64,000 bases of DNA from Mesostigma viride (taxonomy: Eukaryota > Streptophyta > Mesostigmatophyceae > Mesostigmatales > Mesostigmataceae): positions 8,201,241 to 8,265,240 of the forward strand of contig RPFO01000065.1 in NCBI GenBank assembly GCA_009746045.1. The letters are read 5' to 3'. The notes under the pieces are model-generated. The model ran no database searches. It was not told the DNA's origin and saw only the letters and a program-made list of their open reading frames with translations. Of the stretch, positions 12,854-36,946 are shown in pieces; within the stretch, counting starts at the first letter, position 1, and every line of letters starts with the position of its first letter. The position numbers and the translations under genes were made by a program.

Positions 12854-12869
12854 AAAACGCGGTCGCTCA

Positions 12870-14600: not shown

Positions 14601-14675
14601 TAGTACTGCCTATTAGTGAATTTCCTATCAATGGACTATAGTCCACTGATAGGAAATTCAGGAATCGGCATACTA
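14601..14675. repeat. 75-bp near-perfect palindrome, copy 2
   Basis: Identical to the palindrome at 4895-4969, again inside the CTG-rich tract downstream of the gene. Confidence 0.9.
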
Positions 14676-15651: not shown

Positions 15652-15702
15652 TAGGATACATTTGAAGCCGTGCAAATGTATCCTAATCCGGTAAAACCAC
15701 CC
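15652..15702. mobile_element. Conserved right terminus of family-B element, copy 2
   Basis: Same 13-bp hairpin and ACCACCC end as at 5946-5996. The base after 15702 is the first of gypsy-like coding sequence (RRDLMG..., the region just after RNase H in such polyproteins). This fits insertion of the family-B element into a gypsy element. No matching left end or left gypsy half is visible in the window. Confidence 0.7.
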
Positions 15703-16219: not shown

Positions 16220-17244
16220 CTATGAGTATTGCCCTGCATGCTGGACGTGATTAAGGCCTTCACTAAAACTGAGGACCTGGCCACTAAGGCCATTCAGGAA
16301 GGAAGCTTTGGTAACAGGCCTGTGGAGTACTGGGAGGGAGTCCTTTATGTCCACACCCAGGATGCAGATCATGTAGTGACCAGGAAGGTCTATGTGCCAG
16401 AAATGGCCATTCCCACTGTGTTGCATTGCTTCCATGACGACGTGACTGCGTGTCATCCTGGGTATGCTAAGCTTCTCCATGAAGTACAAGAGAGGTTTTG
16501 GTGGCCCATGGCATGTTTCGTGATATCAAAGCCTATGTGGCTTCCTGTGACTCATGCCAAAGGAATAATAAGGTTAGGACTCAGGCAGTGCCTATCTTTC
16601 CTATGGCCATGCCTATTCCCCTTCGACCCTGGATCAGTGTGACCATGGACTTCATTTGTGGCTTGCCTGTTTCTGATGCTGGCAATGACAGGATACTGGT
16701 GGTGATGGACAGGCTGTCTAGAATGTGCCATCTCATCCCCTGCAATGCCCATCTCACAGCTGCCCAGTGTGTAGAGTTGTTCATGAAGGAGGTGTACAGA
16801 CTGCATGGCATATGCCACGTGTAATCATCACTGACCAGGATCCCTTGTGGATGTCTGGGTTCTGGAAGTCCTTCTTTGACATCCTGGACACTAAGTTGGC
16901 CTTTGGAGTAGCATACAGGTGTGCCAGCACGGGGGCTGTGGAGAGGCTGAACCGTATTGTACGGGAATGCCAGAAGCACTATTGTACCCATGATAACAAG
17001 GAATGGGACAAGAAACTTCCCTTCATAGAGTTTGCCATCAACAACTCACCCCTGGCTCCTCACCAAATGTCTCCATTTGTCATTTGCCATGGCCAGTGCC
17101 CCTTGACTCCATTTGACCTGGAGTTACCTGACAGGGATGCTGAAGGCCCCTTCAGAAGACGCCTAACCTCTATCCACCAGCTGATAGCATCCTTCCAGGA
17201 AGCTCACAGTATGGTTGCTGCTCAGATGTTGCATGCACAGGACA
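16220..17244 (+). pseudogene. Ty3/gypsy integrase, frameshifted and split by insertion
   Basis: The integrase is spread over three frames (16229-16642, 16498-16824, 16725-17303). The zinc-binding HHCC module is visible as HDDVTACHPGYAKL and, one frame on, CDSCQRNNK. The catalytic triad is present: D in TMDFICGLP, D in IITDQDPLW, and E in GAVERLNRIVRE. At least two frame slips separate these pieces, so as written it cannot make an active enzyme. Its C-terminal part is displaced to 36943-37496 by the giant transposon. Confidence 0.85.
17241..17244. other. Target site duplication GACA, left
   Basis: GACA lies immediately left of the terminal GGGTGG and is matched by GACA at 36943-36946. Keeping only one of the two copies and dropping the insert puts the flanking gypsy codons back in one frame, strong evidence that this 4-bp sequence is the target duplication. 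Confidence 0.9.
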
Positions 17245-17317
17245 GGGTGGTCCCACGCGGAATGGGGTCATTTTTGGCGCATTTTGCAAGAAAAAAACGC
17301 TAGTTTCAATCGTCCGA
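17245..17317 (+). repeat. Left terminal inverted repeat of family-A element
   Basis: The outer 24 bp are identical to the right end in inverted orientation. After a 9-bp length difference near 17269-17281 (the left has extra GGCGCAT-like bases), another block of about 35 bp through TTTCAATCGTCCGA matches with a single substitution. Confidence 0.92.
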
Positions 17318-17538
17318 TATCTTTTTTTCGCGCGAATTTGGCGTCCGATCGCGTATTTTCGAGCTAATTTGGTGTCATAATGCTTAATTCATGTCAATTT
17401 GAGCGTACATTCCACATCGAGAGGCTTGAAAGTTAGTAATTCATGTAAATTTTACGTGGAGAGACTCGACATCATCCTAACCTTTGTATTAACCATAGGA
17501 CGAGCATTGCCAGCGCATGTCCAAGTGCTAACTTTCCC

Positions 17539-20500
17539 TCACACTTTCGAGGGCCTCTTCCGTAATTTCGCTTCCGCGATCTGCTGTTCCGTTTTCGAGT
17601 TCCTCCTCTTCTTATCGATCTCCTTTGTAGGCGCCCAGACTTCCACATCCTTCCAGCTCTTGCCATCCGTCAGCTTTACCACCTTCATCGCGTAGTCCAG
17701 CGGCATCCACCACAACTTGTTCTTCAACTTCCCTCCCTTCTCCCCCTCAGCGAAAAACTTAAATGCGACGTCCCTCCACTTGGTGTCGTATCCAGACACC
17801 TGCCCATAAAGCATGACGTCTTCTAGCTTGGCATACATTCGCGTAGCCGTATCCTTGTTCCCTGCTTGCATAATGGCTAAAGTCCACCCATCACACCAAA
17901 AGGCCTCTGGTGCTCCGAACCCCATTTCCCCGTCCATAAGTCTCATTTCCAACGTGGGCTTGTCATCATCCTCATCGCCCGCCTGACTGTCTTCCGCCCC
18001 CTTAGGCTCCTCCCGTCCGGAAGTGTCAGCATGTACAGCCGCTGGTCCGAAGCCCACCGCCACATTAGCCAAGCGAAGTAACTGCTCCACATCCTCATTA
18101 CCTGCGAGCAAACCGATCATGCCATCAACGCATGACTAAAATCGAGTTAGTAGAAATCGGACTGCCAACCGTGAAAAATCAAAACACTCTACATACCAGA
18201 ATTCACTCGCAGATTTTTTCTTACCCTTTTTGGCCTTTTCCTTCGACCTCTGCTCGCAGGTAGACCCCGTCTGGGGGTGGGGGGCAGGCTCCGGGGCGGG
18301 TTTGGCGGGCTCGGCAACCTTGGCAGTCTTCGCGGTCTTGGGTAACTTCTTGGAAGCAACGCGCTCCTTTCCCCCGTCCTCCTCCTCTCCGCCGCCATCC
18401 TCCTCCTCCTTCTCCTCCTCATCGTCCGAATCTGAAAGCACAACTTCTTTTCGACGCCGTTTCTGAGGCAGGGCAGGCTTGGGAGGCTTCCCCACCTTGG
18501 CCGATTTCTTGGAAGCAACGTGCTCCGCAGCCTTCCCACCCTTGGCGGATTTCTTGGTAGCAACGTGCTGCTCCTCCTCCTCCTCCTCCTCCTCCTCCCC
18601 CTCCTCCTCCTCAGCATCGTCGTCCTCCTCCTCCTCCTCCTCCTCAGCATCGTCGTCCGAATCAGCCACTGCCACAACTGGCTTACGAAGCTGCTTCTTC
18701 GGTACCTGAGAAATGGCCAGAGTCGGCGGGGGAACCCGAAGCTGCTTCTTCGGTACCTGAGAACTGGGCAGAGGCGCCGGGGTGGGCAGAGTCGCCGGGG
18801 GAACCCGAAGCTGCTTCTTCGGAACCTGAAAAACGGGCTGCGACGCGGCAGGCTTGGAAGGCCCACCTCCATCATCCTCAACAAGTGACACGACTGCCCG
18901 TCGAGTCACTTGAGAAGCGGGCTTCTTCGCCGCAGGCGGATCCGAATCACCTTCAGGCCCCGTCCTCTGTTCGGCCTGCTGCGTTCTGACCTCGACGGGG
19001 GTCTCTCCGCGGTTAGACCCTCCTGCCGGACCTCCATCCCCTCCATCCCCTCCCTCCAACAACTGTTGGTCATCCCTCTCCACCACGGCGGACGATCCCC
19101 CAGCTTCGTGGGAAGCTTTTCGCTTCTTCGCCCTTCCGAGCCTAGGCCCCCCATCACCTTCCCCCTGTTCAAGCCGCTCCCACAATTCACTCCCTTTCCC
19201 GATCCTTTCCACTATCTCTTGAAACCCCTTAATCTCCGTCTTGGTACCAAACACGATCACCATCGGTTCGAACCTGGAGAAAAAGTCGTGGGCGCAAGCC
19301 TTCAGCACATTATCGTACATCCCGCCCGGTTGGGGAATGGACGAAGCTGTCGGGCAAGGACCGAACGCCCACCACCCTCTCTGAAAGTTACTCCACTTAT
19401 CACCCCAAATGTTCGCCAAGTTCAGCAGGCTCAGGCACGGAAGGGACCTGCCCAAGGGAAAGGGGCGGGCTGAAGCTGAGGCAACCTCGCCTGCCACCTG
19501 CTTGACGAGCGACTTGTCATCATCATCACCGTCTAGTTCCTGACAGCAAAACCAGACCCGGCGACGGCCCCAGTCCACACTCTGCCACTCATACTTCACG
19601 TCCCATTCCTCCTCCTCCTTCGCCTCCTCCTCCTTCTTCGCCTCCGTCTCCTTCCCCTTCCCCTTCCCCTTCCCCTTCTCCAGCCCCTTCACCGGCCCCT
19701 TCATCGCCGCCTCCTTCACCCCCCCTTCGAGTAATCCAACTTTTGGAGCGTACTTCCTGAACGCTTCCGGAGCCAAAAGTGCCAAACCCACCGTCTTGTC
19801 CTCGCTCTCTTTTAGCAGAATCTCCTGAAAGTCGATCTTGCCACTACTGAGATCCTTTCTCGGAATCCTCAGATGTGCGGCGTGTTTTTTGGCTTTAAGA
19901 AGGTAGGCGATGTTCCTCGTTATGATGACGGCCACATCCCAAAATTGCCGGTATCTGGCCACAATCTCCTGCCTGCCGACCGGCCGAAGGAGAGGATGGA
20001 GATTGAAGACGAGTTCGAAAATATGAGACGCCACAAACTCCTTGCCCTTTGCGTCCTTGCATTGCGCTTCCAGCGTCTCATCCTCCTTGAATCTGGCGCA
20101 AATGGTCAGCCGCAGGCACTCCAGCACATCCTTGGCGAACTCCACCAACTTGGTGAGCTTTTCCGGTCCAACCTGGCAGCTCATGATGCAATCGATCACG
20201 GCGTCCATCATAGGAAGGCTGGCCAAGTTCCTGAAAGCGGTCCAAGAGACCTTCTGGCCTTTCTTCTCCCCCTCTGCATTCGCGAATTTGCACCTTTGCA
20301 TCATCACCTCCTCAGGCGCGGGTTTCGTTGAGGCAGGATCATCAGTCTGCTCCTGTGTCAGACGGAGAAACGTGTTGGCCAGCGTGCGACTGTAAGCGGA
20401 ATGCACTGAAGCAATGCTGTGGGCCGGCTTTTTCTTTCCTTCTGCTTCCTCCTCGTGTACATCCACCGCTGCCGGCTCCACATTCCCTTCCCTTCCCCCC

Positions 20501-23500
20501 GCTTGCCGCATAGCCGGGAGGATGTACGTGAGCAGATTGGTGTAGTGGCCATCCGCAATATAGTGGCCCTTCCCACGCGTGACTTTGCCGTATAGATATA
20601 GCTTGTTGTAGTTCCACACGTCAAGCAACGCCTGGCCCAGCGTACGATCCGCCACGGCTAAGTCCTCCGAATTCGCCCCCTTGGCGATGTCGAACAGCTT
20701 CTCCAGCTTGCCGGTCAGCACCGCCTGCGACATCAATTAACATCGAGCGAGCAACGACAAAACTCAGTCATAAAAGGCGAGGGGTATAGCTGCGGATAGA
20801 CCCTAACAAAATTCGAAAAAGAAACGGCCGACAATACGCAACGAAAATTCCAACAAAAAAAAGGAGAGGGTCTAGCTGCAGCGAGACCCTCGCAAAAAAC
20901 TTGAAGCGCACACAAAAAACAACCACGAAAATTCCGAGGGTCTACCCGCAGCTAGACCCTGCCAAAATAGATAGCTTACATCTTCTTTTGCCTTAGGTAG
21001 ATTTCGAAGCTCACTCCACGACGGGAGCAGGTCGCCACCCTTGAGAAGAATGACGTTCGTACCCATGTAACCACCACGGAATTTCCGCAACAGGTCCTGG
21101 AAGGCGTGCTCCGCCTCCTTAGGAGTACTTTGCGAAATTGGACTCCGCCCCACCCTCGCACATCATTGCCCGAACCTCTCCCCACCCGCCATCCGGCCCC
21201 CTGAGAAACGACTTTAACCCCTTAAAGTAGTGGTTCCCATCCACCACCGCGTACCGGAGAACCAGATACGGTACCGGTACCCGTTCCTCAAAAAATTTCG
21301 GATCGTAGGACTTCATCGCAGTATTGCACAGCAGGTTGAAAACTTGCCGACTGCCCTCGATCTCCTGAGGCAAAACTGCGGCCACCTCGTCCACCTGGCG
21401 TAGGTACGCCACTCAAGTCCTCTCGCAGGAAAGAGGTGGTGGACTCCGTGTTAAGCCACACGTCGACTTCAGTATCCGAAAGGGGCCGGAAGTACCTGGA
21501 CCCCACATCCTCCGCGTCAATCTTGGCGCCGTGGTAATGCTTCAGCCACTTGACGAAATCCGGCATGCACAAGATTTGCTTGTCGAACAGGTCAGGTTGA
21601 GATTCGGCAAGCGCCTGGAAAGGGAACTGCCAGACCGGGACAACAACCTTGAAGTGCAAGGCGTTGTCCCGCGCATTGAGGAGAATGCGGGCCGTTCTCC
21701 TTAATGGTTTCAAGGTTTAAACGCCGCTGCCTCAAAGCCTCTGGCAAAATAAGCGCGTTGACCGTCTGGATCCGCATACTGAAACATCCGGTCTGCTGAA
21801 AATCGGCCGGCCGAATCCAACGCGTTTCCCTGAGAGAATTGGCCTTCCGGATGTTCTGGTCCCTGACCTCCTTGTTCGAGTCGACCTTTTTCGAAGGCTT
21901 CCAGCTTTCAATGATAGGGTCGGTGTCCGGGTTCCCACTGCTCGTGAGCACCCCCTCCTTAAAAAGCTTGTTGAGTGACCGGAGCAGCTCAAGAAAGGGG
22001 GAGAACTCGGGCCAGTTTGGCAGGTCATCGACGTCCGCCATCCGCCTACTCGAGCAGTACTTGAGCATATCCTTCACCAGCGCGAACACGGCGTCATGAC
22101 CAGGTAACTTCTTCTCCACCGTGGCGTCTTCGTCCCCCCCGTCATCCTGAAGTAAAAAATCGAAAAGGACCGCAGGATTTGCTCAAGTCAGTAATCTTTA
22201 GGCCGACCACGACATCCTGTTCAGGGACGAACAAAGTTCTGTTGGAATAGTACCTTACTGACACTAAACACCAAGTCCCGCAGCCGTCAGCGTCTACCCG
22301 CAGCGAGAGGTCTAAATTTTCACAACAATCGTACCTGTCCAGTTTTCTGCTGCTTCTTGGCCTCCTTAGCCTTCTCCTTCTCCGCCTTCTTCGCCTCCTT
22401 CTCCGCCGCCTTCGCCTCCGCGTTCTTCTTACTGTTGGCCTTTGCCACCGCATTCAGCGCCCTTTTTCCCTCAGCGGCCCGACGACGAAAATCAGCCTTC
22501 ATGAATTTCTCGATCTTGTCAACCTTTGCCTCTGAGTACTCCTTAGGCTGCCACTTGAAATTCTTGGTGGCTTTCGACTTCACCAGATTTGCGAATTCAT
22601 ATGCCAATTCACTCTTAAAGGTAGCGTCACCCAACACCTCCGTATCGAAATCGGCATCGACTTCCGCCTCAAGTCGTGTCAGGTACTTGCGAAACTCGGA
22701 CCCCGCAGGTCCCTCCGAATCGACGCCATCGGGCGGAGACTTAAGCATGATCAGGCCAACAGCAATAATATGATCCTTCGCAACCTTCTTGCGGGAATCC
22801 AGCTTTTCCCTTTCATGCTCAGTCAATGGGGCTTCGCCGCCTTCCCCCCCGCAGTACCCCCAGCGACAGCCCCCGCCTGCATGACAAAAAAAAACGAACA
22901 AGAAGGGACTTGACCTCAGTTCGATTGTTGCACCATCGTCTCTCTGCGGAGATACCCCTCAGCACGAAAAAAATCACACGAACTCGCGGCGGATGAACGT
23001 ACCTGCACAGCCACTTCTCCCTCAGCGTCTCCCCCATCCTCATCTCCTCCAGCGTTTTCATCCCCCCCATCCTCATCTCCTCCAGCGTTTTCTTCCTCTC
23101 CGGCAGCGCCTGCTGAGGCCAAACCCCCCGCCTGTCAACACCGAATACGACAGCTCATTGGAAATCAAAATTAGTCGACATTTGTATATTTCGCATAATG
23201 CGCTCACTAAAACTTCAGGCGAAATGCAGACATCCGGATATCGTTTAATGCTTACCATTTCCATCTCGAGTCCAGACCAAATACCAGCACTGTCAACAGC
23301 CATCGCCGCAGCCGCCCCCTGAAAAAAGACAACAGATTGGTTGGGGGCACCGTTGAAATTAGCCGAACATGTCAGTCTCAATAAAAGGGTGAGGGTCTAC
23401 CTGCAGCTAGACCCCATGTAAGATGCTCGTGGAAACTCGACGGACAAGCACCCACCTTATCAACCAAGTCTGACAAATTAGGTAAATCCTCCGATACGTC

Positions 23501-24668
23501 CCCTGGCATGGAGCCCCCCTGCATGATATGACAGGACAAACCATGAAGGTTGGTCAGCATATAGAGCCCTATTCAGGGAATGGAAACAACCCAAATCGAT
23601 AAACGATATCGGCAAGTTAACGTACCGAAACGTAGAACTTCCACCTCCTCAAAATCTTCCCCAAAGGCCATATCGGCACTTGATGGGCTCTCTCCTTTTC
23701 CAGTTGCCGCCTCAATTCCGCCTCGAAGAACAACTCGAGGGACTGCCAATGGCCTCCCGCCTCTAAATCAGACCACTCCGTGTCTGTCTTGGTTCGGATA
23801 CTCTGGAGACAATCAACCAACGAGATTTGATCCAACCATTCCTGGACGACTTCCCGGTATGGCTTATATGTCTGAATAACATGGAAGTCCTCCCGGTGCC
23901 GGAAACTTTGGATCACCTGTCCAGCCCAATCCAAAAAGAAAGCGACCGCTTCCCGCGAAAGGCTGGCGTCCGGGCTGACAAGAAAGTCAGTCCGCCACTT
24001 AACAAAAGATTGCAGTAAGTGGTCTCTTGCCATGTCCAAATGCGCGATCACTTCATGTGCGCGGCTCCTCCAATCCTCTACGTCATTCATTTCTTCCGGC
24101 ACAATTACGATATAGTCACTGTTGGACGTGTCAACAAATCCTTGCCTGACAATATCAAACACTTCATCTTCCGACAGTGAAGCCCTCGAATCCGCTCTCA
24201 TATCTCCAGTCATGAGTTTAAAGAGCTGATGCAACGCAGTGTTTTCAAGGTTTCCATATAGGAAGCCTCGATGCATGTGAAGCCAATGTGGACCTCGAAC
24301 TTTTCAACCTCATCAAAGAGCGTCGACCATATTAAAGGACGACGGAAAGTAACGTCCGACATCTCCTTCAGATTAAGGATGCACGACTGCGCGATCTTCA
24401 AACCTCATACATGTCGTCACCAACGACCCTCTTCCCATGAATGGCTCGCTGTGTGGCTTCGAACAATGCAAGACGGCCAGGCGCGTCGTTCTTCCAAATT
24501 ATGTGTGCCGACTCCGGACGGTCCACGACGACACCGGACTTCTCTGCAAACGTATCTCGCCGAAAGAAGCGGATCAAGCCTCTCAAGCCCTTTTCGGTTT
24601 TACGACTCACCCCAGCCTCCAGACTCAGTCTGAGCCAGGTACTGTTTCAGAATGGCCACCGTGGAGGG
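17539..24668 (-). CDS. Multi-exon gene of unknown function carried by the giant transposon
   Basis: I do not recognise this protein. Canonical GT-AG junctions define exons at 23626-24668, 23456-23518, 23256-23318, 23003-23131, 22335-22876, 20980-22146, 18193-20724 and 17539-18135. Where checked, the introns fall in phase 0, and two exons are exactly 63 nt. The product exceeds 1,800 residues. The N-terminal half is globular-looking, with W/F/L-rich segments (for example FVKWLKHYHGAKID). The 18193-20724 exon begins LTGKLEKLFDIAKGAN, carries a K/E-rich linker, then a nuclear-type tail with four Q(V/T)PKKQLR-like repeats, poly-E/D tracts and AT-hook-like basic patches. The last exon has a W-rich globular end (KLWWMPLDYAMKVVKL). 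Three to six frame slips occur inside exons, several in homopolymers. Several introns hold the element's palindrome. It could be a DNA- or chromatin-binding accessory protein; this is inferred from composition only. Confidence 0.6.
20725..20979 (-). repeat. Intron carrying three copies of the palindrome
   Basis: This 255-nt phase-0 intron has donor GTAAGC and acceptor GTCGCAG. It contains palindromic elements at 20782-20803, 20868-20889 and 20938-20959. Each is a variant of GGGTCTMGCTGCAGCKAGACCC-type sequence and each is preceded by AATTCC/AAAATTC-like spacer words. The tandem arrangement inside one intron suggests multiplication after intron formation. Confidence 0.8.
22280..23414. repeat. 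Intronic palindromes at three further introns
   Basis: Copies lie at about 22288-22312 (degenerate, CGTCTACCCGCAGCGAGAGG), 22938-22959 (GTCTCTCTGCGGAGATACCC) and 23393-23414 (GGGTCTACCTGCAGCTAGAC...). They fall in the introns 22147-22334, 22877-23002 and 23319-23455. The short introns 23132-23255 and 23519-23625 lack one. None lies in an exon. Confidence 0.75.
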
Positions 24669-24858
24669 CTGCAGACAACAAGAGTAAAAAAAAGGCCACA
24701 CATCGTCATCGTCGTCGTCAACAACCTTAACTCCTAGGTCAACGTCTCTCCGCAGCTAGACCCTTACGATCAATGTATGGCATAAAATCCCACCTTTCTA
24801 CGATACACACACGCCGTTCAAGCCATCTGAAAATGTACGTCTTACATTAAAAACATAC

Positions 24859-25420
24859 CTGATAATCGACTGAAAATCGTTCGTGAAGAAGGGGTGGGCT
24901 CCCGTTCTCGTCCTTCTCCCCCTCAACTGCCTTCGCAGCCTCCCCTCCTTCCTCGCAGCCTCCTCCATCTTCCTCGCGGCCTCTTCCGCCTTCATCCTCT
25001 CCTGTCCATCTGCAAAAAAGAGCGGCCTCCTCCGCAAGAATTCCCTTCGCTGCCGCCTCGTCTTCTTCTTCGCTCCTCCTTCTGCTTCGCCACCAGGTCC
25101 TGTGCTCCTTCTCCTGGGCAGCCTTTTTTCCTTTACTCCCTCTCCTCCTCCTCCCTCTCCGCCTTCTCCAGCCTCTCCTTCTCCTCCTCTCCACCCTCTC
25201 CCTCTCCGCCTTCTCGATGGCCTCCCTCTCCGCCTTCTCCTTCTCCTTGTCCTTTTGTCGAGAGCCGCGTATTCGTCAGCAAAGCTTGCGGCCATTAGCT
25301 AACAAATCGGACAACCGCTTCTTGACGCGATCCCGAACCGGCGATTCCGGGTCTTCAGGCCTCCCGTTAGTCTGATCGCGCTCGTCCTCCTCAACAAGCT
25401 CACTGATAGACTTCCTCAGC
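24859..25420 (-). CDS. E/K/R-rich coiled-coil exon(s), frame-broken
   Basis: A donor CAG/GTATGT at 24858/24859 ends the frame ...HERFSVDYQ in phase 0, joining it to the next exon across an intron (24669-24858) that carries a palindrome at 24743-24763. Upstream the codons spell charged helix-forming sequence (DKEKEKAEREAIEKAERER, later EEAARKMEEAARKEG), but at least three one-base slips scatter it over all frames. Further upstream, 25300-25420, another frame reads SISELVEEDERD and VRDRVKKRLSDLL. This is likely the N-terminal coiled-coil part of the same gene. Confidence 0.5.
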
Positions 25421-25990
25421 TTCTGAGCTCTTGGTGCGGTCGTCTTCCTCTACCCACTCGCCGCAGGCTTACGCTTAGACTGAATGCTTGGGGGACGGCG
25501 AGCGGGACGCAGCAGCGGGGACTTGCTGGTGGCGGCGAGCGGGACTTGGGGGAAAGCAGAGCGGGACGGCGAGCGGGTCGCAGTTGCGGGGTTCTTTGGT
25601 TGACGGCGAGGGGGACTTGCGAGAAGGAGAGCGGGACGCCAGGTAGCGGGGGAACTTTGGGCGGGAAGGGGGGACTTGCGGTTCGGCGAACGGGTCGCAG
25701 TTGCGGGGACTTTTGGGGACTTGCGGGGCGGCGCGGGACGCAGTAGCCTCCGGCCGACTTGGGGCGGCGATGGAGACTTACGGGGCGGAAACGGGACGGA
25801 GCGCGAGACGCAGCAGCGAGAGAGGTGGGGGGTATAATTCTGTCCAACTCGCTGGGGGCAAGTTGGACTTGGAGGGCGAGGGGGACTCGGTGGGGGGGAC
25901 CTCGCAAGACTTTTACGGGACCGAACTGCAACGAAGGAAACTCCTCCGTTGCGTTCGGCTCCGGCGAGGTGTTCGACGTCATCTTGGGTG
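25416..25990 (-). CDS. Proline/arginine-rich N-terminal region, hypothetical
   Basis: From an ATG near 25980 the minus frame begins MTSNTSPEPNATEEFPS and continues as a P-, R- and S-rich low-complexity chain with repeated (R)RPA, PQLRPxRR and PKSPP-like words, to 25416. The likely role is a disordered N-terminus of the multi-exon gene downstream. No domain is visible. The plus strand is also open here, so coding is not certain. Confidence 0.35.
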
Positions 25991-26107
25991 AAACGGAGTG
26001 GCCTTGACAGAATCGGAATAGGAGGACGACATCTGCAGAACTATCAAAAAAGCAAGTTTTCACAATGTCATTCAGAATCTGAATCGCCGGCAGAAAAACG
26101 ATGGGAG

Positions 26108-26570
26108 GGGTCTCGCTGCAGCTAGACCCTTTCGTGGATTCTAAAAGGACATTTAGTTTAATGCAAAACTTTGGCGTCTCGCTGCAGCGAGACCCTCACT
26201 TCAAGCAAAAACAAATCATTTTTAGGGTGAGCGTTAAACAAGCAACCTCCCATCATGCAAACATAAAAAAGTATACATTCCTTGGGGTCTCGCTTGCAGC
26301 GAGACCCTAACGTCAAACAAAAAACAAATAATTTTAGGGTGAGCGAAGGAAGCCCCTCCCATCTTGCAAAATTAAAAGTCGACATTCGTAGGGGTCTCGC
26401 TGCAGCGAGACCCTAACACCGATACAAAAACAAATCATTTAAGGGTGAGAAAAGAAAGACCCCCCATCATTGAAAAACATAAAAATTGACATTCCTTGGG
26501 GTCTCGACTGCAGCGAGACCCTAACGTCAATACAAAAACAAAATTCCGAGGGTTCTACCGCAGCGGACCC
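26108..26570. repeat. Tandem array of about 107-bp units each with the palindrome
   Basis: Palindrome copies lie at 26108-26129, 26174-26195, 26285-26307, 26392-26413, 26499-26521 and 26550-26570. The four middle ones are embedded in a repeated unit of about 107 bp: palindrome, CTAACGTCAA, ACAAAAACAAATCATTT, AGGGTGAG, CCCCTCCCATC, TTGACATTCCTTGG. The array sits just upstream of the minus-strand gene's presumed start and could include its promoter, although no promoter element is identified. Confidence 0.9.
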
Positions 26571-26579
26571 TTACGACCA

Positions 26580-27235
26580 CGTATAAATAATGTGGGGGGG
26601 GAAGCTACGTATAAATCATGTGGGGGGGGATGCTATGTATAAATGCATGTGGGGGGTGGCTGGCATTAATAATTAAATGTGGGGGTGTGATGGCATGAAT
26701 AAATAAATGGGGGGGGTGCTGCCATGAATAAAGAATGTGGGGGTGTGATGGCATGAATAATGAATGTTGGGGGTGCTGGCATTAATAATTAAATGTGGGG
26801 GGGTGATGGCATGAATAAATAAATGTGGGGGTGCTGCCAGAATAAAAGATGTGGGGGTGATGGCATGAATAAATAAATGTGGGGGGTGCTGCCATGAATA
26901 AAGAATGTGGGGGTGCTGCCATGATAAAAGAATGTGGGGTGTGATGGCATGAATAAATGAATGTTGGGGGTGCTGGCATTAATATAAATGTGGGGGGTGA
27001 TGGCATGAATAAATAAATGTGGGGGGGTGCTGCCATGAATAAAAGAATGTGGGGGTGTGATGGCATGAATAAATGAATGTTGGGGGGTGCTGGCTTAATA
27101 TTAAATGTGGGGGGTGATGGCATGAATAAATAAATTGTGGGGGTGTGCTGCCATGAATAAAAGATGTGGGGGGGTGATGCATTAATAATTAAATGTGGGG
27201 GGATGATGGCATGATAAATAAATGATACGTGCGAT
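26580..27235. repeat. Minisatellite with ATGTGGGGGGTG core, plus orientation
   Basis: About 22 units of about 30 bp, alternating two types: AATGTGGGGGGTGATGGCAT-GAATAAATA and AATGTGGGGGTGCTGCCAT-GAATAAA. G-run length varies between five and eight, giving frequent frame changes. No gene. Confidence 0.9.
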
Positions 27236-29710
27236 CACCCCCCCACATGTATTGATAACGTAGGCATCACCCCCCACGTGTATTAATACGTAGCATCCCC
27301 CCCACATGTATTGATACGTAGCAGCACCCCCCACATGTATTGATACGTAGCAGCACCCCCCACATGTATTGATACGTAGCAGCACCCCCCCACATGTATT
27401 GAATACCGTAGATCCCCCAACGACATGTATTTGATACCGTAGCAGGCAACCCCCCCACATGTAATTGATACGTAGCAGCACCCCCCACACTTATTGATAC
27501 GTAGCAGCACCCCCCACATGTTTGATACGTAAGCAGCACCCCCCCACATGTATTGATACGTCAGCAGCACCCCCCCACGCTGTATATACCGTAGCATCCC
27601 CCCAACTGTATTGATACGTAAGCAGACCCCCCCACAATGTATTGATACGTAGCACACCCCCCCACATGTAATTGATACGTAGCGCACCCCCCCACAATGT
27701 ATTGATACGAGCAGCACCCCACATGTATTGATACGTAGCAGCACCCCCCACGTGTATTGATACGTCAGCAGCACCCCCCACCGTGTATTGATACGTAGCA
27801 GCACCCCCCACTGTATTGATACGTAGCGCACCCCCCACATGTATTGATACGTAGCAGCACCCCCCACATGCTATTGATTACGTAGCATCCCCCCCCCACA
27901 TGTATATTGATACGTATGCAGCACCCCCCACATGTATTGATACGTTGCAGCACCCCCACATGTATTGATACGTAGCAGCACCCCCACGTGATTGATCGTG
28001 CAGCACCCCCACATGTATTGATACGTAGCAGCACCCCCACTGTATCTGATACGCAGCACCCCCCCACGTGTATTGAATACGTTGCAGCACCCCCCACATG
28101 TATTGATACGTAGCAGCACCCCCCACATGATTTGATACTCAGCAGCACCCCCCACATGTATTGATACGAGCAGCACCCCCCACATGTAATATACGTATGC
28201 AGCACCCGCCCCCACGTGCTATTGATACGTAGCAGCACCCCCCCGTGTATTGATACGTAGCAGCCCCCCCCACAATGTATTGCTACGTAGCAGCACCCCC
28301 CCACATGTATTGATTTACAGCAGCACCCCCCCCATGTATTGATACGTAGCATCCCCCCCACACATGTATTGTACGTAGCAGCACCCCCCAATGTATTGAC
28401 ACGTAGCAGGCCCCCCACCATGTATTGATACGTAGCAGCCACCCCCCACCTACATGTCATACGTAGCAGCACCCCCCACGTGTATTCGAACTAGCAGCAA
28501 CCCCCCGACATGTATTGATACGTAGCATCCCCCCACACAATGTATGATCGTAGCACACCCCCCCACATCGTATTGACAACGTTAGCCAGCACCCCCACAT
28601 GTTATTGATAGTAGCCAGCCCCCACCACATGTATTGATACGTAGCAGCACCCCCCGTGTATTGATACGTAGCAGCACCCCCCACATGTATTGATACGTTA
28701 GCATCCCCCCCACACTTGTATTGAACGTTAGCCAGCACCCCCCAACATGTAATTGAATACGTAGCAGACCCCCCCACATGTATTGATACGTTTAGCACAG
28801 CACCCCCCCATTGATTTGATAACGTTAGCAGCACCCCCCACGTGTATTGATACGTAGCAGCACACCCCCACGTGTCATTGATACGTAGCAAGCACCCCCA
28901 CATGTATTGATACGTAGCAGCACCCCCCCCATGTATTGATACGTAGCATCCCCCCCATGTATTTGATACGTAGCATCCCCCACCACAGTATTTGATACCG
29001 TAGCAGCACCCCCCCACATTGTTTGATACGTAGCGCACCCCCCAATGTATTGATACGTGCAGCACCCCCCCACATGTATTGATATCGTAGCAGCACCCCC
29101 CCACGTGTATTGTTACGTAGGCGAAGCACCCCCCACGTGTATTGATACGTAGCAGCACCCCCCACGTGTATTGATACGTAGCAGCACCCCCCCTTGTATG
29201 ACCATACGTAGCCAGACCCCCCCAGCACTGTTATTGATAGTAAGCAGCACCCCCCCACATGTATTGATACGTTAGCCAGCACCCCCCCACGTGTGATTGA
29301 TACGTACGCAAGCACCCCCCACTGTATTGATACTAGCAGCACCCCCCCCATGTATTGATACGTAGCAGCCACCCCCCAGTATGATACGTCGCGCCACATG
29401 ATGAATCACGTAGCAGCACCCCCCCACATGTATTGATACGTAGCGCACCCCCCACTGTATTTTACGTCTGCACCTGGCACCCCCCACGTAGTATTGATAC
29501 GTAGCAGCACCACCTGTTACTGATACGTACGGACCCCATTATTGATACAGTAGCAGCACCCCCCCACATGTATTGATACGTAGCAGCACCCCCCCGTGTC
29601 ATTGATACGTAGCAGCACCCCCCACATGTATTGATACGTAAGAGCACCCCCCACATGTATTGATACGTAGCAGCAACCCCCCCACATGTTATTTGATACG
29701 TAGCAGCACA
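27236..29710. repeat. Minisatellite with CACCCCCCACATG core, inverted relative to its neighbour
   Basis: Roughly 80 units of about 30 bp (CACCCCCCACATGTATTGATACGTAGCAG type) with many one-base length differences. Its core is the reverse complement of the core of the array at 26580-27235, so the two arrays face each other at about 27235. There are no spacers, so it is not a CRISPR array. Short W/G/Y/V-rich open frames on the minus strand are artefacts of the repeat. Confidence 0.93.
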
Positions 29711-29712
29711 AT

Positions 29713-30415
29713 TTTTAGTAGCTACCATCCACGTTGCGGCAAAAGATACCATTTTTTTGTTTCGGCAATAATGAAGATTTCTTGCAAACTATCGTCTATG
29801 CAGGAGGTAGCACGTCCGATGTTATAATCGGCAGGTAGCATGCAAACGTCGAAACGATATGAAGGGAAAAAAGCATCAAACAGGAGCACCGATTAGAAAC
29901 GCAGCAATGCGTATGTGCACATCTACACATTAACCTAACCCAGACCAACAGGCATAGCAAACCTGGAAGGGACCCAGAAACGCCAGCACACATGATCGAC
30001 AATGTGCGAGACCAAGAAACGCTCCTGGCAACAGACTTAAAGGATGGATGCCAGTGTGGATTAGGATCGGCTAAGCTGACTCTCCGAGATGCCTGCAGGT
30101 TTAGCTAGCAACGAAAGAGGAAGCAGATTTTTTATCACTCTTGCTGCTAACCATTAGAGTTCTCTGGATCGGCCAGCGGAACCATGTTGTCGCCAGTGGC
30201 TAATGCATGTTCGTCGGTCGTGCATAGCGTTTGTTTAGTTTGCCGGTTTTTTGATAGAACATTTTAGTTCAGCCTACCATCCAGATGCGGAAAGCATCAC
30301 TCTTTTTTTCGTTGTGCGGCTAAAGGCAGGACAGATTCAAACTTCCGGCACCAGGCAGGTATCAACGTAGGATTTTATAATCCAGCAGGTAGCATGCAAA
30401 CGTCGAAACGATATG
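29713..30415. repeat. Diverged 150-bp direct repeat
   Basis: Blocks at about 29713-29860 and 30264-30415 share CTACCATCCA(C/G), GCGGCAAA/GCGGAAAGCATC, a T-rich run, TTATAATC, and finally the identical 28-bp word that begins GGTAGCATGCAAACGTCG and ends at ATATG. The sequence between them has no supported gene. Confidence 0.75.
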
Positions 30416-30419
30416 GCAG

Positions 30420-30681
30420 CTCGTATCAGCTATGGGGTCTCTCTGCGGCTGCGCTTCTTTTTCGATGGGCGATGGGACGGTCGCAATTCGCAAACGGACG
30501 CGGCGTCACAGGGCTGAACGGTATTGAAAAAATTGGAAACGTGGCATCCTCGTTCCTCCCCACGGAACTGAAAACTGGAAGCGCGGCGCTGGTGCAAAAG
30601 CTCGATCCCATCTTTTGGAACCAAGCTAGCGGATTGGACGACATCCAATATGCCGTCACCCGTGCTTGTGGCCGCAGGTAT
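30420..30681 (+). CDS. Possible exon, unrecognised
   Basis: An open stretch (NGIEKIGNVASSFLPTE, later VQKLDPIFWNQASGLDD) is preceded by a degenerate palindrome (GGGGTCTCTCTGCGGCTGCG at about 30434) and followed by a plausible donor, CCGCAG/GTATAAAA. This is the same layout as the exons of the two main genes of the element. It might be an upstream exon of the transposase gene. Weak evidence. Confidence 0.3.
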
Positions 30682-30849
30682 AAAAAGAGACGACCTCCAG
30701 CCCATTTACCTGGGAACATTCGGATGTTTGGCTGACATCGTTACCATGCGTCAATGTACAATGAGGTTCTGGGTTCGATTCCTGGTGTGGTCATGGAAAT
30801 AAATTTTTTTCTGCACATCTACTGAAATCAGTCATAGCACCAAACAATC

Positions 30850-31508
30850 ACGCTGCAGCGAGACGCTATAGCCCTGGAGCCGCTGATAAACCTGACATCC
30901 GGTACGTCTTACTATCATAGATTGCCGAACTATATAATAATAATAGTCTATACCACTTTTTCTTGTAAATGATTTACTAAATAATGATTCTATATACTTT
31001 AACATACCATATTATTAAAGTATGTGGAATTTAACCATGCTATTCACAATATATTATAAAATCTTTTGCAAAATATACTGTAATTAGTATATATATTTTC
31101 TGATAAACAATTTTATCAATGCTACTGTGTTATTTTTGTTATTCTCGCCATGCAGGTATCTGAGTGTTCTGGGAGAACTAATAAGAGAATGAGCCGCGAA
31201 GGTGAGGAAAACCTGAAATCTTTTCGTCCTTATTGGGGTCTCTCTGCAGCTAGACCATTTATAACCACAAGCAATAGCTTAAATTCAAGGGTCTCGCTGC
31301 AGCTAGACCCTCTTTATGGTTGCTATAAAATTAATGAATCAGAAGTCTGTGATTTAACAATCGCACGCCGCAATGAAGGGTCTAGCTGCAGCGAGACCCC
31401 AATCTTGGTCGGGGTATGCTAAGTTCACCACATCAGGTAATCTTTTCGTCTAACGGAAAAAGCCCCTCTAAGGGTCTAGCTGCAGCTAGACCCCAATCGT
31501 GGTAAAAA
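30850..31508. repeat. AT-rich spacer followed by four palindromes upstream of the transposase
   Basis: The stretch 30900-31150 is strongly AT-rich with no gene. Palindromes follow at about 31237-31257, 31289-31310, 31378-31399 and 31472-31493, spaced about 52-94 bp apart, immediately before the first transposase exon. They may lie in a 5' intron or the promoter region. Confidence 0.75.
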
Positions 31509-34500
31509 ATGATACACTTTCGAACTTTGTCTGTAATTGTCGCTTTTCCCAACGATACTCGATTTGCATGGATTTCGTTGTGCCGGTCGTCATGGCATGC
31601 AGCACGCGAACGGGTGGGAGTTTTCGCCCTTGCGTCCGGTCGTCCAGGATTCAGTGCAATTAAGTTGAACACCGGGACGAAGCAGTCAACTGGCGCAAAA
31701 AGGGTTTTCGGAGATGAGAACCAGAATCCAGCGCAGCCTGAAGCCAAGGAAGTCAAGCGGCCGGGAGAATACTCGAAATCAAAGAGGGTTATTGGGGAAT
31801 ATTTCGCTGACCAGGCGTTTGAAGCGGCTCAGGCGATGACAAAACCCGAGGGGCGGGGGCCGGCTTTCGACCAGATGATTGCTGGCTTTAACTCTAGGGC
31901 CGCTGAACTAGGTCACGGGAAGTATCATGAGGAGGCGAAAAAGCTTTACAATCAGGAGCGGATGGCAGAACTGAACAGGTTCTGGGTGGCTCGGATTAAC
32001 GGCTTTTTTGATGGTCTGACCAAAAGCGACGCAGACAGAGACGTCAGGATGGTGCTGATGTCCACGCTTTACTGTGGTGACGACTTGGAGAAGGAGTTTT
32101 CGGCCGCGGAGTTGGAGAACCTGACGGGGATGGACGCCAAGAAGATTCGCGGAATTCGCGCGATACGAAGGCAGCAGAAGTTGGACTACCTCAGACACGC
32201 GCAGGCTCGCAAGGGGCGCCCTTTGCCGCAATTCGTGATTGACGCGATAGTGGACGCGTGGATGCACGATGATGAGTCGCGCGCCTCCTCCCAGATGAAG
32301 GATGTCAAGCGCACTTACAGCAGGGAGGGTCGTGGCAATCACGGGGTGCTCGTCGCCGTTGAGGGAGCGCGCTATTACATGACCTCCAAGGAGGACATGT
32401 ACAATCACTTTCTCGAAAAGCATGCGTACTGGAACAAAAGGAGTAACCAGTATGATAAGGACGTGGGCATTCACGTGGGCTACACGACCTTCTGCAAATA
32501 CGCGCCCGATTGCATCAAGGGCAAGTGGAAGGAGAGGAACCTGTGCGCGTGTGAGAAGCACGTCACCATGCAGTCGGCCATGGGGGCGTGGACCAAGCAC
32601 TCCAATGCGAACCACGGCAAGAACTGCAAGTGTGGCGCGGAGTGTGCGGGATGCTCCAAGTACAGAGAGCCGGACGGTACTTGCGGAATGTGGAAAGCCA
32701 TTCACTCGACGGACTGGATCAAGCACTTTCACTGCCCGGTGTCCGCCGAGACTGACGGCAGGGATAACGGGCTGCGTGAAGGGGGCGGAATGGGCGGGGG
32801 GATGGAAGAGGGGGAGGGGGAAGATGAATGGCGGGGACGGGACCTGGAAGACCTCGACATTTCTGAGAGGCTGGTGGAGGACGAAGATGGGGTGCCGAGG
32901 ACGGAGAGGGTTCACCGCATACTGAAGATGGCGTGTGTGGAGGGGTTCTGTCCTGAGGAATCATGCGGCATCCATAATAACTGGGTGCAGTGTGATCGGG
33001 ACAAGAATTCCACGGAGATTCTGAATTGGTTCAAGTTCGAGATGGTGGAGCAGACTGTGACCCGACGGGTGAATGTGAGTTGGTTTCGATTTTATTTCTC
33101 CGTTAATATGTTGTTGACTTTTTTTTTTGTGACCTATAGCTGCAGCGAGACCCTTTGTGAGTTGCAGTTATCTTATCGAAATGCGATTTTATTGCAAATC
33201 GAAACTGTCTGCGGACCTTTGCGAAACAGGGCGAGACCGATGGCAGGGCGGCGAAGAAGGTGAAGCGGCCCGAGCAAGTCCAAATGAGGTCCACCCCAGC
33301 TGAGCTGCGGGACGAGATTCTTAAGATGTGGGACAAGTTCACCGTGCACTGCTTTACGGCCTGGTCGCAGGCGGATACAATCAAGGATCGGGAGAAGAAT
33401 CTGAGAGAGGGGGACGTGCTCGTGCACGGCGACTGGGCCGAGAACTACGAGAACAGCAGCTACGTCCAACTGCAGTCGCAGTACTTCCACAAGCGCAGCC
33501 ACATCCTGATGCCCATGATCGTGCGTTATCGGCTCAACGGCGAGCTGGAAAAGCGCGTCTTCTTTTTCCTGGGGGATTCCAGTATCAAGCGGGGCGAGCG
33601 CGCACTCGTATACGCTCTTCGCAAGATTCTGGAAACCCTGCGGGTAGAAGTAGGGGTAGAGGTGCGAAACCTGTACATGTGCTCGGACAACTGCGCGGTG
33701 CAGTTTAAGTCCAGGTACGTGATTAACCAGATTAACGGTCTGCTCATGGGGGATCCCGACCTGCAGGCCTTTGAGTTCCACTACATGGGGGAGCAGCATG
33801 GGAAGGGGGAGGTGGATGGTCAAGGAGCGAAGTGCAAGTGCGTCTTGAGGGAAATGCAGAGGATTCCCGAAAACCAGCACATACTTGAGACCCACCAGCT
33901 AGTCGCCTACTTGAACCAGAACTGGCAGGGCGGCAAGACATCGAGCAGGGAGTCGGCCCGCGCGCGGGCCGAGAACGTCACTCGCCACTTCTTCCTTTTA
34001 CCCCCGGTACGGAATTGTGTGTTATTTCAGGTTTTAAGACGTCAACTGCCGCTGTTCTATAAAAATTCAAACCCAATAAAGGTATCTCTGCAGAGAGACC
34101 CTATATACTGTCAATGGGTTGCTTTTCTTTTAGGTATGAAATTTCGCTTGTTCTATCGGTATGAAGGGGTCTCTCTGCAGCTATACCCTGTGTCGAATTT
34201 CGATCACTTGATATCTTGTCGTACGTTGTTATTATGATTCGAATGGGGTCTCTCTGCAGCTATACCCTGTGTCGAATTTCGATCACTTAATATCTTGTCG
34301 TACGTTGTTATTATGATTCGAATGGGGTCTCTCTGCAGCTATACCCTGTGTCGAATTTTGATCACTTGATGTCTTGTCGTTATTTTTTTTTTTAAGGGGT
34401 CTCTCTGCAGCTATACCCTGTTTTATTGATTTTTGGTCAATTTTGCTAACTTGAACGGTATTCTTTTTGCCCTAACTATTTGATGACAGGACGTCGAGTC

Positions 34501-35235
34501 CGGCCGACGCGCGGAGGTGAGGAGGTGCCTGGCATCAAGAAGGCGCATTGGTGGCGACTGGACAAGTCCGACCCTGGCCTTTTGATGATTAGGCGCTATT
34601 CCTGCTACTGTCCGCCCTGTTTGGCTGGGCGGTTTGAGGGATGTCTAAGCGAGTGGTCGTTTATCATCGAGTTCAATGATGCAGGAAGCTCGATGAAAAC
34701 TGTCCGTTTGCTGCCACCGAGCCAGCCCAACCCTCCGGTTCGCATGGTGACGCGGGGGGAGCAGCTGAAGGACAAGCGGGAGGCGATGGGCCGGCAGATG
34801 AGACTCCACGACTATGTGGCAGTTCCATCGGACAAGGACACGGATCACGATCCCATCCACCCGTTCTGGTTGGCTGAGGTTGTAAGCGAAGCCGGGCCGA
34901 TCGTGTTAGACGAGAACTTCGAGAGGTGGGTCGAGGGCCGGAACGGACGGGAGAAGGAGCTGTTCCTCGCCGGGAACGGCATTCTTCCCGTTCGGATTTG
35001 GAAGCGGGATAAGCATGACCCCCTGCATTTCACGCTCAACGTTGAGGATTGGCCACCGTCACGCCAGCCCGAGCTTGTGAATTGCTATCTCTGCGTCGCT
35101 CCGGCTCTCCGGCTAGAAGCACGCGTGCGCAGCGACGGAATGTGTGCCGACATCAGGATGAGCAAGGAGCTCGACAAGTGGCTTACTGCGCTGGTGATCA
35201 AGGATGAAGCCCCGGAGGGGCCGGCACCGACTTAA
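31509..35235 (+). CDS. DDE-like transposase gene of the giant element, three exons
   Basis: Exon 1 runs 31509-33074. The true start may be later, because an acceptor-like CGTCCAG precedes 31650. The intron 33075-33229 is GT-AG and phase 0. Exon 2 is 33230-34006; the next intron ends at 34489 and exon 3 ends at the stop at 35235. Exon 1 has a helical N-terminal domain and a Cys/His cluster (CACEKH, CKCGAECAGC, later C-x4-SCGIHNN). Exon 2 has the presumed catalytic core: GDWAENY near 33431, CSDNCAVQFK near 33680 and HGKGEVDG near 33798. That matches the acid residues of a D-D-E/D fold in a family whose animal members carry DFAENY and GKGAVDG. Exon 3 has CYCPPC...GC and a BAH-like module (HPFWLAEV). 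The exon 2/3 join is out of phase by one base, next to a C5 run at 34001-34005. It probably mobilises the element, if the frame is intact. Confidence 0.72.
33136..33157. repeat. Palindrome copy in transposase intron 1
   Basis: A half-degenerate copy (TATAGCTGCAGCGAGACCC) inside the 155-nt phase-0 intron between exons 1 and 2. Confidence 0.75.
34081..34418. repeat. Five palindromes in transposase intron 2
   Basis: Copies lie at about 34081-34102, 34165-34188, 34245-34267, 34325-34347 and 34396-34418. The middle ones belong to an 80-bp tandem unit (palindrome, TGTCGAATTTCGATCACTT, TATCTTGTCGTACGTTG, TTATGATTCGAAT). Most carry the variant right arm CAGCTATACCC. Confidence 0.88.
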
Positions 35236-35520
35236 ACAAGAAATTGGGGTCTCGCTGCGGGTAGACGACGCCCTAGTTTCGGCTCGTATTATATCTTTAG
35301 AGTGGGGCTTCAGTAGGGTGTAAAAAGGTGGCCGCATATATTGTATATATTTTTCGAGATCTTTCTGAGGTCAAGTTTAAGGGTAGTTGATAATTTTTTG
35401 CGGCCTTCAATTAACAGTTATTTTTTACTGCAACATAATTTTATGCTGTATATTTAAATAATGATAAGGATTTCGATATTTTTTTGCACAATCTATTCGA
35501 CATTTGTTTCTGCATGTCGA

Positions 35521-35737
35521 GAATTTATTGCTCCACCCCCACAAAAAAAATCGTTCCGGAACTGTTCGAAGCGAATAGCACTGACAGGATTCGAACCCGG
35601 GTCCACCTTAATGTTCGGAGTGAGGTAGGCCAGCCATCATGTTCCGCACTCAAATCTGGCTCGGGTCCGATCCCTCCATTGCTCTTCGCTTCGAACAGCT
35701 CCGGAACAAGTTAGGTGTGGGGTTGGAGCAATAAATA
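35521..35737. repeat. Foldback element built from two opposed tRNA-like sequences
   Basis: The left arm (35521-35579, TTTATTGCTCCA...GTTCGAAGCGAATAGC) and right arm (about 35680-35737) are inverted copies of about 55 bp. Just inside, GGATTCGAACCCGGGTCC at 35587-35604 is the reverse complement of a tRNA T-arm (GGGTTCGAATCC), and an opposed, degenerate copy (GGGTCCGATCCC) lies near 35662. The whole 217 bp can fold into one hairpin. No intact tRNA cloverleaf with paired acceptor arms was found. Confidence 0.6.
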
Positions 35738-36056
35738 CTTATTTGCCGGGCGCAGTTGTCATTCCGCCTAGTACAATTGCGTCACTAGTACAATTTTTGT
35801 CTGGGTACGGTACGAACCAATAACGCAATATTTAGTATCTAATCGCCGCTGCTCTTGCTGAATTTTATCCGGAAGCTGAAAAAGGTGTCCGGTGAAGCGA
35901 ATACTAGTGACTGGTGGTCGTGCCCTTCCATTACTCCTTATCGACAAATTTTGGGTTCTACCTGCAGTTATAACCCTTGCGCGTCTGGCTGTCGGGGTCA
36001 CCAATTTCCTGTCGATTGCAAGCAGCCAACCTTGCCGAAATTTAACACTGTCACAA

Positions 36057-36494
36057 ATGGAGCAGAGCAATATTTTCGGTTCTCAGCATACCTATGTGAT
36101 GGTCGACAAAAATGAGCACGCTGCAAACATCAGAATTGATGTAGAGTTGCTCGGACCTTCTGCACAGTGGGGTGCAGGTGTCATTGCGTTCGGCAATGGC
36201 ATGATCGATCTGGTGCCACCCGATTCAGATTTGAACCCTGCTTACCAATGCGTGCCTGACAATCAGGCGAGAGTGGTGGTGGAGAGCACGGAAATTCCGG
36301 GCTCTCCCAATGTATCAATGATGCGCCTGAGGGCCGAGGCCCAGCAGGAGTTCCTGGCTGCTGCGGAGAACGGCGGGGCCAAGTGGAACACCAAAATGTA
36401 TACAGGCGAGCCTCCCAACTACAGGGGAGACCAGTACCAGGGAGTGTACTCCTTCGGCGATTTTGACATCGACGGATGGGGCACCTTTTTCTAG
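36057..36494 (+). CDS. Small hypothetical protein gene near the right end of the giant element
   Basis: From MEQSNIFGSQHTYVM at 36057 the frame encodes about 145 residues ending GDFDIDGWGTFF. It has mixed hydrophobic/charged composition and looks like a compact folded protein. The frame stays open upstream to 35892, but that part overlaps a degenerate palindrome at about 35953-35977, which suggests intron. A poly(A) signal AATAAA lies at 36583, 89 bp after the stop. No family is recognised. Its place 450 bp inside the right terminus suggests an element-encoded accessory protein. Confidence 0.5.
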   Translation: MEQSNIFGSQHTYVMVDKNEHAANIRIDVELLGPSAQWGAGVIAFGNGMIDLVPPDSDLNPAYQCVPDNQARVVVESTEIPGSPNVSMMRLRAEAQQEFLAAAENGGAKWNTKMYTGEPPNYRGDQYQGVYSFGDFDIDGWGTFF

Positions 36495-36582
36495 GCGCAA
36501 TGCCTAAGTTGTCAAATACTCCGACAATGTCAAAATTGCGAATGATAAAATTACGGACATGTGCACATATATGTACTGATTC

Positions 36583-36588
36583 AATAAA
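36583..36588 (+). promoter_or_regulatory. Poly(A) signal AATAAA
   Basis: The consensus hexamer is 89 bp downstream of the small gene ending at 36494. It fits as that gene's 3'-end signal. Confidence 0.5.
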
Positions 36589-36878
36589 AACTTTCGGCAA
36601 TTTTGTTCCCGGCATTGATAATCAATAGCTGCTAGCAAGCCAAGGACTTCAAAAGTGGCAATAGATCGATGTAGGTCGTCGATAAACTTGTCTAGTCGTC
36701 ATATTTCGGTCGCAAAATTCGTGCGTGGCCTGCAGGCATCGGACAAAGTGCACGCAACAGCAGGAGTCGGTTGAGTTCGAAGCACGGCAGACACAAAATT
36801 TCGGCGCAAAGTCCGTCGGGCGAAAAATTCGCTCGGCTGCCAAATTTTCGGCAAGAATTTCGGCGCAATGTCCGGTTT

Positions 36879-36942
36879 TCGGACGATTGAAATTAGCGTT
36901 TTTTTCTTGCAAAAATCTACCCCATTCCGCGTGGGACCACCC
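36879..36942 (-). repeat. Right terminal inverted repeat of family-A element
   Basis: Inverted match to 17245-17317, with the outer 24 bp identical. The adjacent subterminal DNA contains two copies of ATTTCGGCGCAA(A/T)GTCCG at about 36788-36806 and 36848-36865, possible transposase-binding sites. Confidence 0.92.
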
Positions 36943-36946
36943 GACA
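36943..36946. other. Target site duplication GACA, right
   Basis: Second copy of the 4-bp target sequence. See 17241-17244. Confidence 0.9.

What the first reader, a model, noticed from the sequence alone, without database searches (positions are those of the whole stretch)
17245..36942. A 19.7-kb DNA transposon caught inside a retroelement, with its target site intact
Seen: inverted ends of 73/64 bp (outer 24 bp identical, starting GGGTGGTCCC), GACA on both sides, and gypsy integrase codons on the left (to 17244) that continue in frame on the right (from 36947) once the insert and one GACA are removed. Known: 4-bp target duplications occur in several cut-and-paste superfamilies (for example Sola and Ginger; piggyBac and Kolobok need TTAA). 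Inference: an unusually large TIR element carrying its own transposase plus at least two other genes, possibly an undescribed family. Such size is exceptional outside Mavericks, Starships and piggyBac-virus fusions.
Basis: partly seen in the sequence, partly recalled or inferred. Interest (0 to 1): 0.95.

Follow-up and report, generated by a model that had tools for sequence, protein, structure and literature searches.

The report
Giant algal cut-and-paste transposon family
A 20,000-letter jumping DNA element, one of many near-identical copies in what is most likely the green alga Mesostigma viride, carries its own probable transposase and a repeated palindromic signal that also occurs in the shorter relatives examined.

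Summary
Window 17245-36942 has inverted ends with 24 identical outer bases, GACA on both sides, and interrupts a Gypsy integrase frame. The 440-Mb genome has 438 matches to the 24-bp end, reversed control 0. Exact 4-bp duplications flank 16 of 20 other large end pairs, 7 of 7 pairs of a 10-kb class and 10 of 11 short copies. Eight of eight left ends differ by 2-12 substitutions in 1,500 bases, so transposition was recent.

The element encodes a protein with an RNase-H-like core, matched only by proteins labelled Mesvir1, plus a long opposite-strand gene and a 145-aa gene.

New here: the dyad GGGTCTNNCTGCAGNNAGACCC occurs 23 times inside and once in the rest of the window, in all three size classes read, and mostly outside predicted exons. 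It is probably a protein-binding cis site.

Giant algal DNA transposons are published (PMC12477816), so size alone is not new. The superfamily is unassigned; Sola1 is one candidate. The empty-site search did not complete.

The parts
17241..17244 (.). Left target-site copy, GACA
   Evidence: Sequence; 4-bp duplications in other copies
17245..17317 (+). Left terminal inverted repeat, about 73 bp, outer 24 bp identical to the right end
   Evidence: 86-bp left end at 100% in 40 of 40 scored genome places, out of 467 candidates
17539..25982 (-). Long multi-exon gene of unknown function, model about 2,056 aa; largest exon in the 866-aa ORF 18136-20736; no Pfam match above cut-off
   Evidence: Gene model score 524 against 11.6 (other strand, left part) and 3.5 (minus strand, right part); training used parts of these genes; Pfam (residues 1-1576). 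Exon borders are my model, not transcript evidence
20782..20959 (.). Three palindromic sites GGGTCTNNCTGCAGNNAGACCC (2, 0 and 1 mismatches) in a predicted intron of the long gene
26108..26521 (.). Four palindromic sites (0, 1, 0 and 4 mismatches) at or in an array of about 106-bp tandem units
26583..27224 (+). G-rich 29-bp minisatellite array
   Evidence: also in the C887 copy
27223..29709 (-). Similar 29-bp array in the opposite orientation (C-rich on +), meeting the first at 27223
   Evidence: also in the C887 copy
31189..31201 (+). Probable first transposase exon (MSREA...), following the annotated protein P0001
   Evidence: Read by eye; the annotated protein starts 12 residues earlier
31236..31493 (.). 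Four palindromic sites (1, 0, 0, 0 mismatches) in the first transposase intron
31603..33074 (+). Transposase exon: cysteine/histidine-rich N-terminal part
33230..34006 (+). Transposase exon with RNase-H-like core; invariant D68 and D153, third acidic residue probably in EQHGKGEVDG (exon numbering)
34080..34418 (.). Five palindromic sites (2, 1, 1, 1, 1 mismatches), four at about 79-bp spacing, in the third transposase intron
34490..35235 (+). Transposase C-terminal exon; a one-base length difference from the C887 copy changes the frame here
36057..36494 (+). Small gene, 145 aa, protein identical in the C887 copy
36879..36942 (-). Right terminal inverted repeat, about 64 bp
36943..36946 (.). 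Right target-site copy, GACA

Best explanation
This is one copy of a recently active family of giant TIR DNA transposons in (very probably) Mesostigma viride. SHOWN: shared 24-bp ends, exact 4-bp target duplications with no motif apparent by eye, near-identical copies, and three size classes: about 20 kb with genes, about 10.3 kb (one copy read) with no transposase-like ORF, and about 586 bp. INFERRED: the plus-strand protein with the RNase-H-like core is the transposase; it binds the ends, cuts the element out, and inserts it at cuts staggered by 4 bp. The 10.3-kb and 586-bp classes move in trans. The repeated palindrome is the binding site of a dimeric element-encoded protein (transposase or the long minus-strand protein) that helps assemble the complex or controls expression. 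Its half-sites are fixed while the 2-bp spacers do not pair beyond shuffled expectation, which fits protein-DNA contact better than a hairpin.
Against: No activity shown. Core model has mean pLDDT only 55.6 and the full-length model 31. No known transposase family matched; DUF7869 reached only E 0.12 in P0002. 5 of 38 tested other pairs lack an exact 4-bp duplication: C100, C310 and C382 have none, one has 5 bp, one short copy differs. Of 17 left ends followed to the expected distance, 14 showed no right end there; 7 of these were later paired at other distances and 7 stay unpaired. The two C224 copies of 34.6 and 58 kb checked are internally rearranged. Some contigs share flanks with others, so copy numbers are inflated. 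6 of the 50 listed palindromes are not near a listed end. Which protein binds the palindrome is unknown.
Confidence: 0.88

Rival explanations
1. It is a giant member of the known Sola1 superfamily, like the 21.5-kb Sola1-1_Ec32 of Ectocarpus: 4-bp duplications, similar size, transposase on one strand and a large accessory gene on the other.
Against: No Sola transposase sequence was at hand, so homology is untested; the accessory gene shows no ParB or methyltransferase domain in Pfam.
Confidence: 0.35
2. It is a new transposase superfamily, or a deep branch of the DUF7869-like RNase-H group, that so far is known only from Mesostigma.
For: Only three proteins, all labelled Mesvir1, were returned from 5.8 billion (E up to 1, up to 10); no Pfam match above cut-off, no NCBIfam or PDB sequence match.
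Against: The protein search needs shared 5-residue words and scored only the 7,997 best candidates, so distant relatives are missed; Repbase is not available here.
Confidence: 0.45
3. The encoded proteins are passengers and the family is mobilised by another element, for instance the P0002 or P0003 relatives.
For: P0003 belongs to a high-copy family of its own (at least 60 near-identical places); the reading frame of the last transposase exon differs between copies.
Against: The two copies read in full keep the transposase exons between their own ends with few differences.
Confidence: 0.12
4. It is an integrated virus or Maverick-like element.
For: Size and several genes.
Against: No Pfam virus domains in the ORFs and models tested; no relative in 2.9 million viral contigs by two protein scans; 586-bp derivatives with 4-bp duplications are typical of cut-and-paste elements.
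Confidence: 0.02

Closest known systems
Sola1-1_Ec32 (Sola-1 superfamily, Ectocarpus, PMC12477816, passages)
   Same: About 21 kb, algal host, transposase plus a large accessory gene on the opposite strand; 4-bp duplication (recalled for Sola)
   Different: Accessory gene there has ParB and methyltransferase domains; none detected here. Transposase homology untested
Giant KDZ and EnSpm elements of algae (PMC12477816, PMC6431247, passages)
   Same: TIR elements of 10-30 kb with extra genes; non-autonomous relatives
   Different: Zisupton of KDZ makes 8-bp and EnSpm 3-bp duplications with CAC ends (PMC12730594, passages); here 4 bp and GGG ends
DUF7869 (PF25273) proteins
   Same: Weak match over the core (P0002 residues 658-748)
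   Different: E 0.12, 12.3 bits against a cut-off of 26
Elements with subterminal or internal transposase sites (Ac/Ds, P element, phage Mu; recalled)
   Same: Repeated internal protein-binding motifs besides the TIR
   Different: Here a 22-bp dyad in 20 or more copies, mainly in introns and tandem arrays, kept as 2 copies in a 586-bp derivative; binding is not shown

Membership tests
Cut-and-paste DDE-type DNA transposon (general) | Terminal inverted repeats shared by many copies | tested here: met
   438 end matches, control 0
Cut-and-paste DDE-type DNA transposon (general) | Target-site duplication of fixed length | tested here: met
   4 bp in 33 of 38 other pairs and the window copy
Cut-and-paste DDE-type DNA transposon (general) | RNase-H-like core with D, D, D/E | tested here: inconclusive
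   Fold supported; two aspartates in place; third residue not settled; low-confidence model
Sola1 | 4-bp target duplication (recalled) | tested here: met
Sola1 | Homology to Sola1 transposase | not testable with these tools
   No Sola reference sequence found; original paper not held
KDZ (Zisupton) | 8-bp target duplication | tested here: not met
   4 bp
EnSpm/CACTA | CAC termini and 3-bp duplication | tested here: not met
   GGG termini, 4 bp
   Duplications GACA, TAGG, CTAA, GCCA and others
Ginger | Gypsy-integrase-like transposase | tested here: inconclusive
   No integrase family in Pfam for the proteins tested; distant homology not excluded
Maverick/Polinton | Family-B polymerase, retroviral-type integrase and capsid genes (recalled) | tested here: inconclusive
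   No such Pfam match in the ORFs and models tested
Starship | DUF3435 tyrosine recombinase at one end (recalled) | tested here: inconclusive
   No such Pfam match in the ORFs and models tested; TIRs with 4-bp duplications argue against
Academ | Academ transposase and nuclease domains (recalled) | not tested
   No reference sequence at hand

The most novel reading that the evidence does not exclude
A new transposase superfamily, seen so far only in an early-branching streptophyte alga, whose giant elements use iterated 22-bp dyad sites as a second cis requirement besides the TIRs. A dimeric element protein binding these sites would bring together ends 20 kb apart, which would explain why even a 586-bp derivative keeps two of them and why large elements collect tandem arrays of them.
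Probability: 0.3. Interest if true: 0.8.

Novelty: new variant of a known kind. Interest (0 to 1): 0.62.

Why it matters
Large cut-and-paste elements must pair ends many kilobases apart, and the growth of giant elements is thought to be limited by ectopic recombination between copies (PMC12477816, passage). This family has nearly identical copies of about 20 kb plus 10-kb and 586-bp relatives that share the same ends and the same repeated palindrome. That makes the question of how large elements are synapsed directly testable, and it adds an unplaced transposase family from an alga near the base of the streptophytes.

Tried and rejected
Virus or Maverick origin: no support. A first impression of ParB-like and methyltransferase-like stretches in the long minus-strand protein, prompted by the Ectocarpus paper, was not supported by Pfam and is withdrawn. 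Intrinsic sizes up to 58 kb: not claimed, because the C224 pairs of 58 kb and 34.6 kb jump between element positions at the stretch read. Hairpin function of the palindrome: not supported by spacer pairing. Rfam found nothing in the element at its gathering scores; ARAGORN found no tRNA in the window. Exact 24-mer in viral contigs: 0. Structure comparison lists no transposase among the 50 rows shown, which neither supports nor excludes membership in any family. Not in print: the listings of searches (titles and starts of abstracts) showed nothing that describes this element. Only open-licence papers are held. I saw passages of PMC6947507, PMC7027972, PMC12477816, PMC12730594 and PMC4455052, and the abstract, section list and passages of PMC6431247; none in full.

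Full report
CHECK. The two ends and the flanking GACA are as described. The 24-bp end occurs twice within 3 mismatches in 64 kb, and 0 of 100 shuffles reach that. The left and right flanks join into one open Gypsy integrase frame once one GACA is dropped, with a chromodomain downstream.

OTHER COPIES. The window lies in a held 439.9-Mb assembly of 2,243 contigs. An 86-base left end gave 467 candidates; all 40 scored were 100% identical. The 24-mer with at most 1 mismatch has 222 + 216 matches, control 0. Eight of eight fetched left ends differ from the window copy by 2-12 substitutions and 0-8 gap columns in 1,500 bases. A second full copy, C887:3911413-3931050, is 19,638 bp and 98.8% identical over the first 4.2 kb; it lacks about 0.5 kb within the long gene.

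TARGET DUPLICATIONS. I paired ends facing each other on one contig. For 20 pairs of roughly 16-58 kb other than the window, 16 have exactly 4 matching bases at the junction; C100, C310 and C382 have none and one C224 pair has 5. C323 repeats the flanks of C224:2489380, so these are 15 of 19 distinct loci. For pairs with 10.3-kb-type ends, 7 of 7 match: six of 10.3-10.7 kb, and one 48.5-kb span that holds a P0003-family match. For short copies, 10 of 11 match (585-588 bp, one of 1,340 bp). By eye the duplicated bases share no motif. These pairs come from the first 100 places listed and, not from all 438. In one search, 14 of 17 left ends had no right end at the expected distance; 7 of those were later paired at other distances (one with the 5-bp match), and 7 stay unpaired, so length varies or copies are broken.

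SIZE CLASSES. Seven pairs with duplications, the window included, span 19.5-21.6 kb; only the window and C887 copies were read in full. Larger spans exist (23.9-28 kb and above), but where internal stretches were compared some hold insertions or rearrangements, so only the ~20-kb size is established. One ~10.3-kb copy (C80) was read over 10,000 bases: no transposase-like ORF of 130 aa or more, two inverted palindrome arrays, a G-rich 30-bp array, and, read by eye from the translations because the repeat listing was cut, a C-rich counterpart. Its ORFs were not run against Pfam. The shortest class is about 586 bp.

GENES. A simple codon-and-splice model gives a long minus-strand gene (score 524), a transposase and a small gene (240 together), and little on the opposite strands (11.6, 3.5). 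The model was trained partly on these same genes, so the scores are not independent, and its transposase exon borders differ slightly from the annotated P0001, which I follow. P0001 is 100% identical to the query; against P0002, P0001 is 58% and P0003 43% identical, P0003 49% in the core. No other protein appeared at E up to 10 in the two core searches. By P0001, the first intron, with four palindromes, separates MSREA from RERV; P0002 has the same residues there, its own introns were not seen. The last exon differs in frame between the window and C887 copies by one base of length; sequencing error is possible.

PALINDROME. GGGTCTNNCTGCAGNNAGACCC within 4 mismatches: 23 in the element, 1 in the other 44 kb, 0 in each of 10 block-shuffled elements. 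The 10.3-kb copy has 22, and each of 11 distinct short copies has 2 perfect sites. Genome-wide there are 1,837 exact sites, control 0; of the 50 listed for C1 and C2 (the list was cut within C2), 44 lie within 22 kb of an end listed, and six do not. The sites sit inside different tandem units of about 106, 79 and 120 bp. Of 17 sites with at most 2 mismatches in the window element, 16 are outside my predicted exons. Spacer bases do not pair more than in shuffles (22 against 24.0; 27 distinct sites). My reading, a dimer-binding site, is inference.

ARRAYS. The central 29-30 bp G-rich array flips orientation in both full copies. A similar minisatellite is also the target of the C887 insertion, so such arrays occur outside the element too.

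PLACEMENT. 4-bp duplications and GGG ends do not fit KDZ/Zisupton (8 bp), EnSpm (3 bp, CAC) or TTAA-targeting groups. Sola1 fits by duplication length (recalled) and by the published 21.5-kb algal element (PMC12477816), but the transposases could not be compared. I therefore file it as a giant 4-bp-TSD TIR transposon family, superfamily open.

Noticed in passing
window 1-5996 and 9707-15702: Direct repeat of at least 5,996 bp at 99.97% identity, cut by the window edge: very long LTRs, a tandem duplication or an assembly artefact.
   Followed up: partly
window 42632-51895: A 3,087-codon open frame with AMP-binding, condensation and carrier domains (NRPS-like) and a 289-bp perfect GTG run; next to it a weak acyltransferase match in 51718-53724.
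   Followed up: no
G000, at least 60 places such as C1:1364643-1365401: P0003-type proteins form a family with many 98-99% identical open matches (63 of 1,485 candidates scored), probably another transposon.
   Followed up: partly
window 35548-35712: Inverted repeat (50 nt, 78%) that includes a GGATTCGAACC motif like a degenerate tRNA arm (recalled); ARAGORN and Rfam are silent.
   Followed up: no
C224:638694-697078 and C224:1407445-1442026: Composite copies in which the element sequence jumps from about 35653 to 20224, or from 33648 to 22878, in window coordinates: recombination or misassembly.
   Followed up: partly
C323/C224, C962/C110, C382/C887, C100/window: Small contigs that share element flanks with larger contigs or with each other: probably redundant haplotype contigs.
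   Followed up: partly
C580:155655 and C887:2091989: The same 14 bases (CTCGGCGGCCGGCG) flank a right-type end in C580 and a left-type end in C887: a repeated host sequence, or one site in two orientations.
   Followed up: no
L010 (C962) and C110: Another copy of the family seems to sit in a Gypsy-like reverse-transcriptase frame (read by eye).
   Followed up: no
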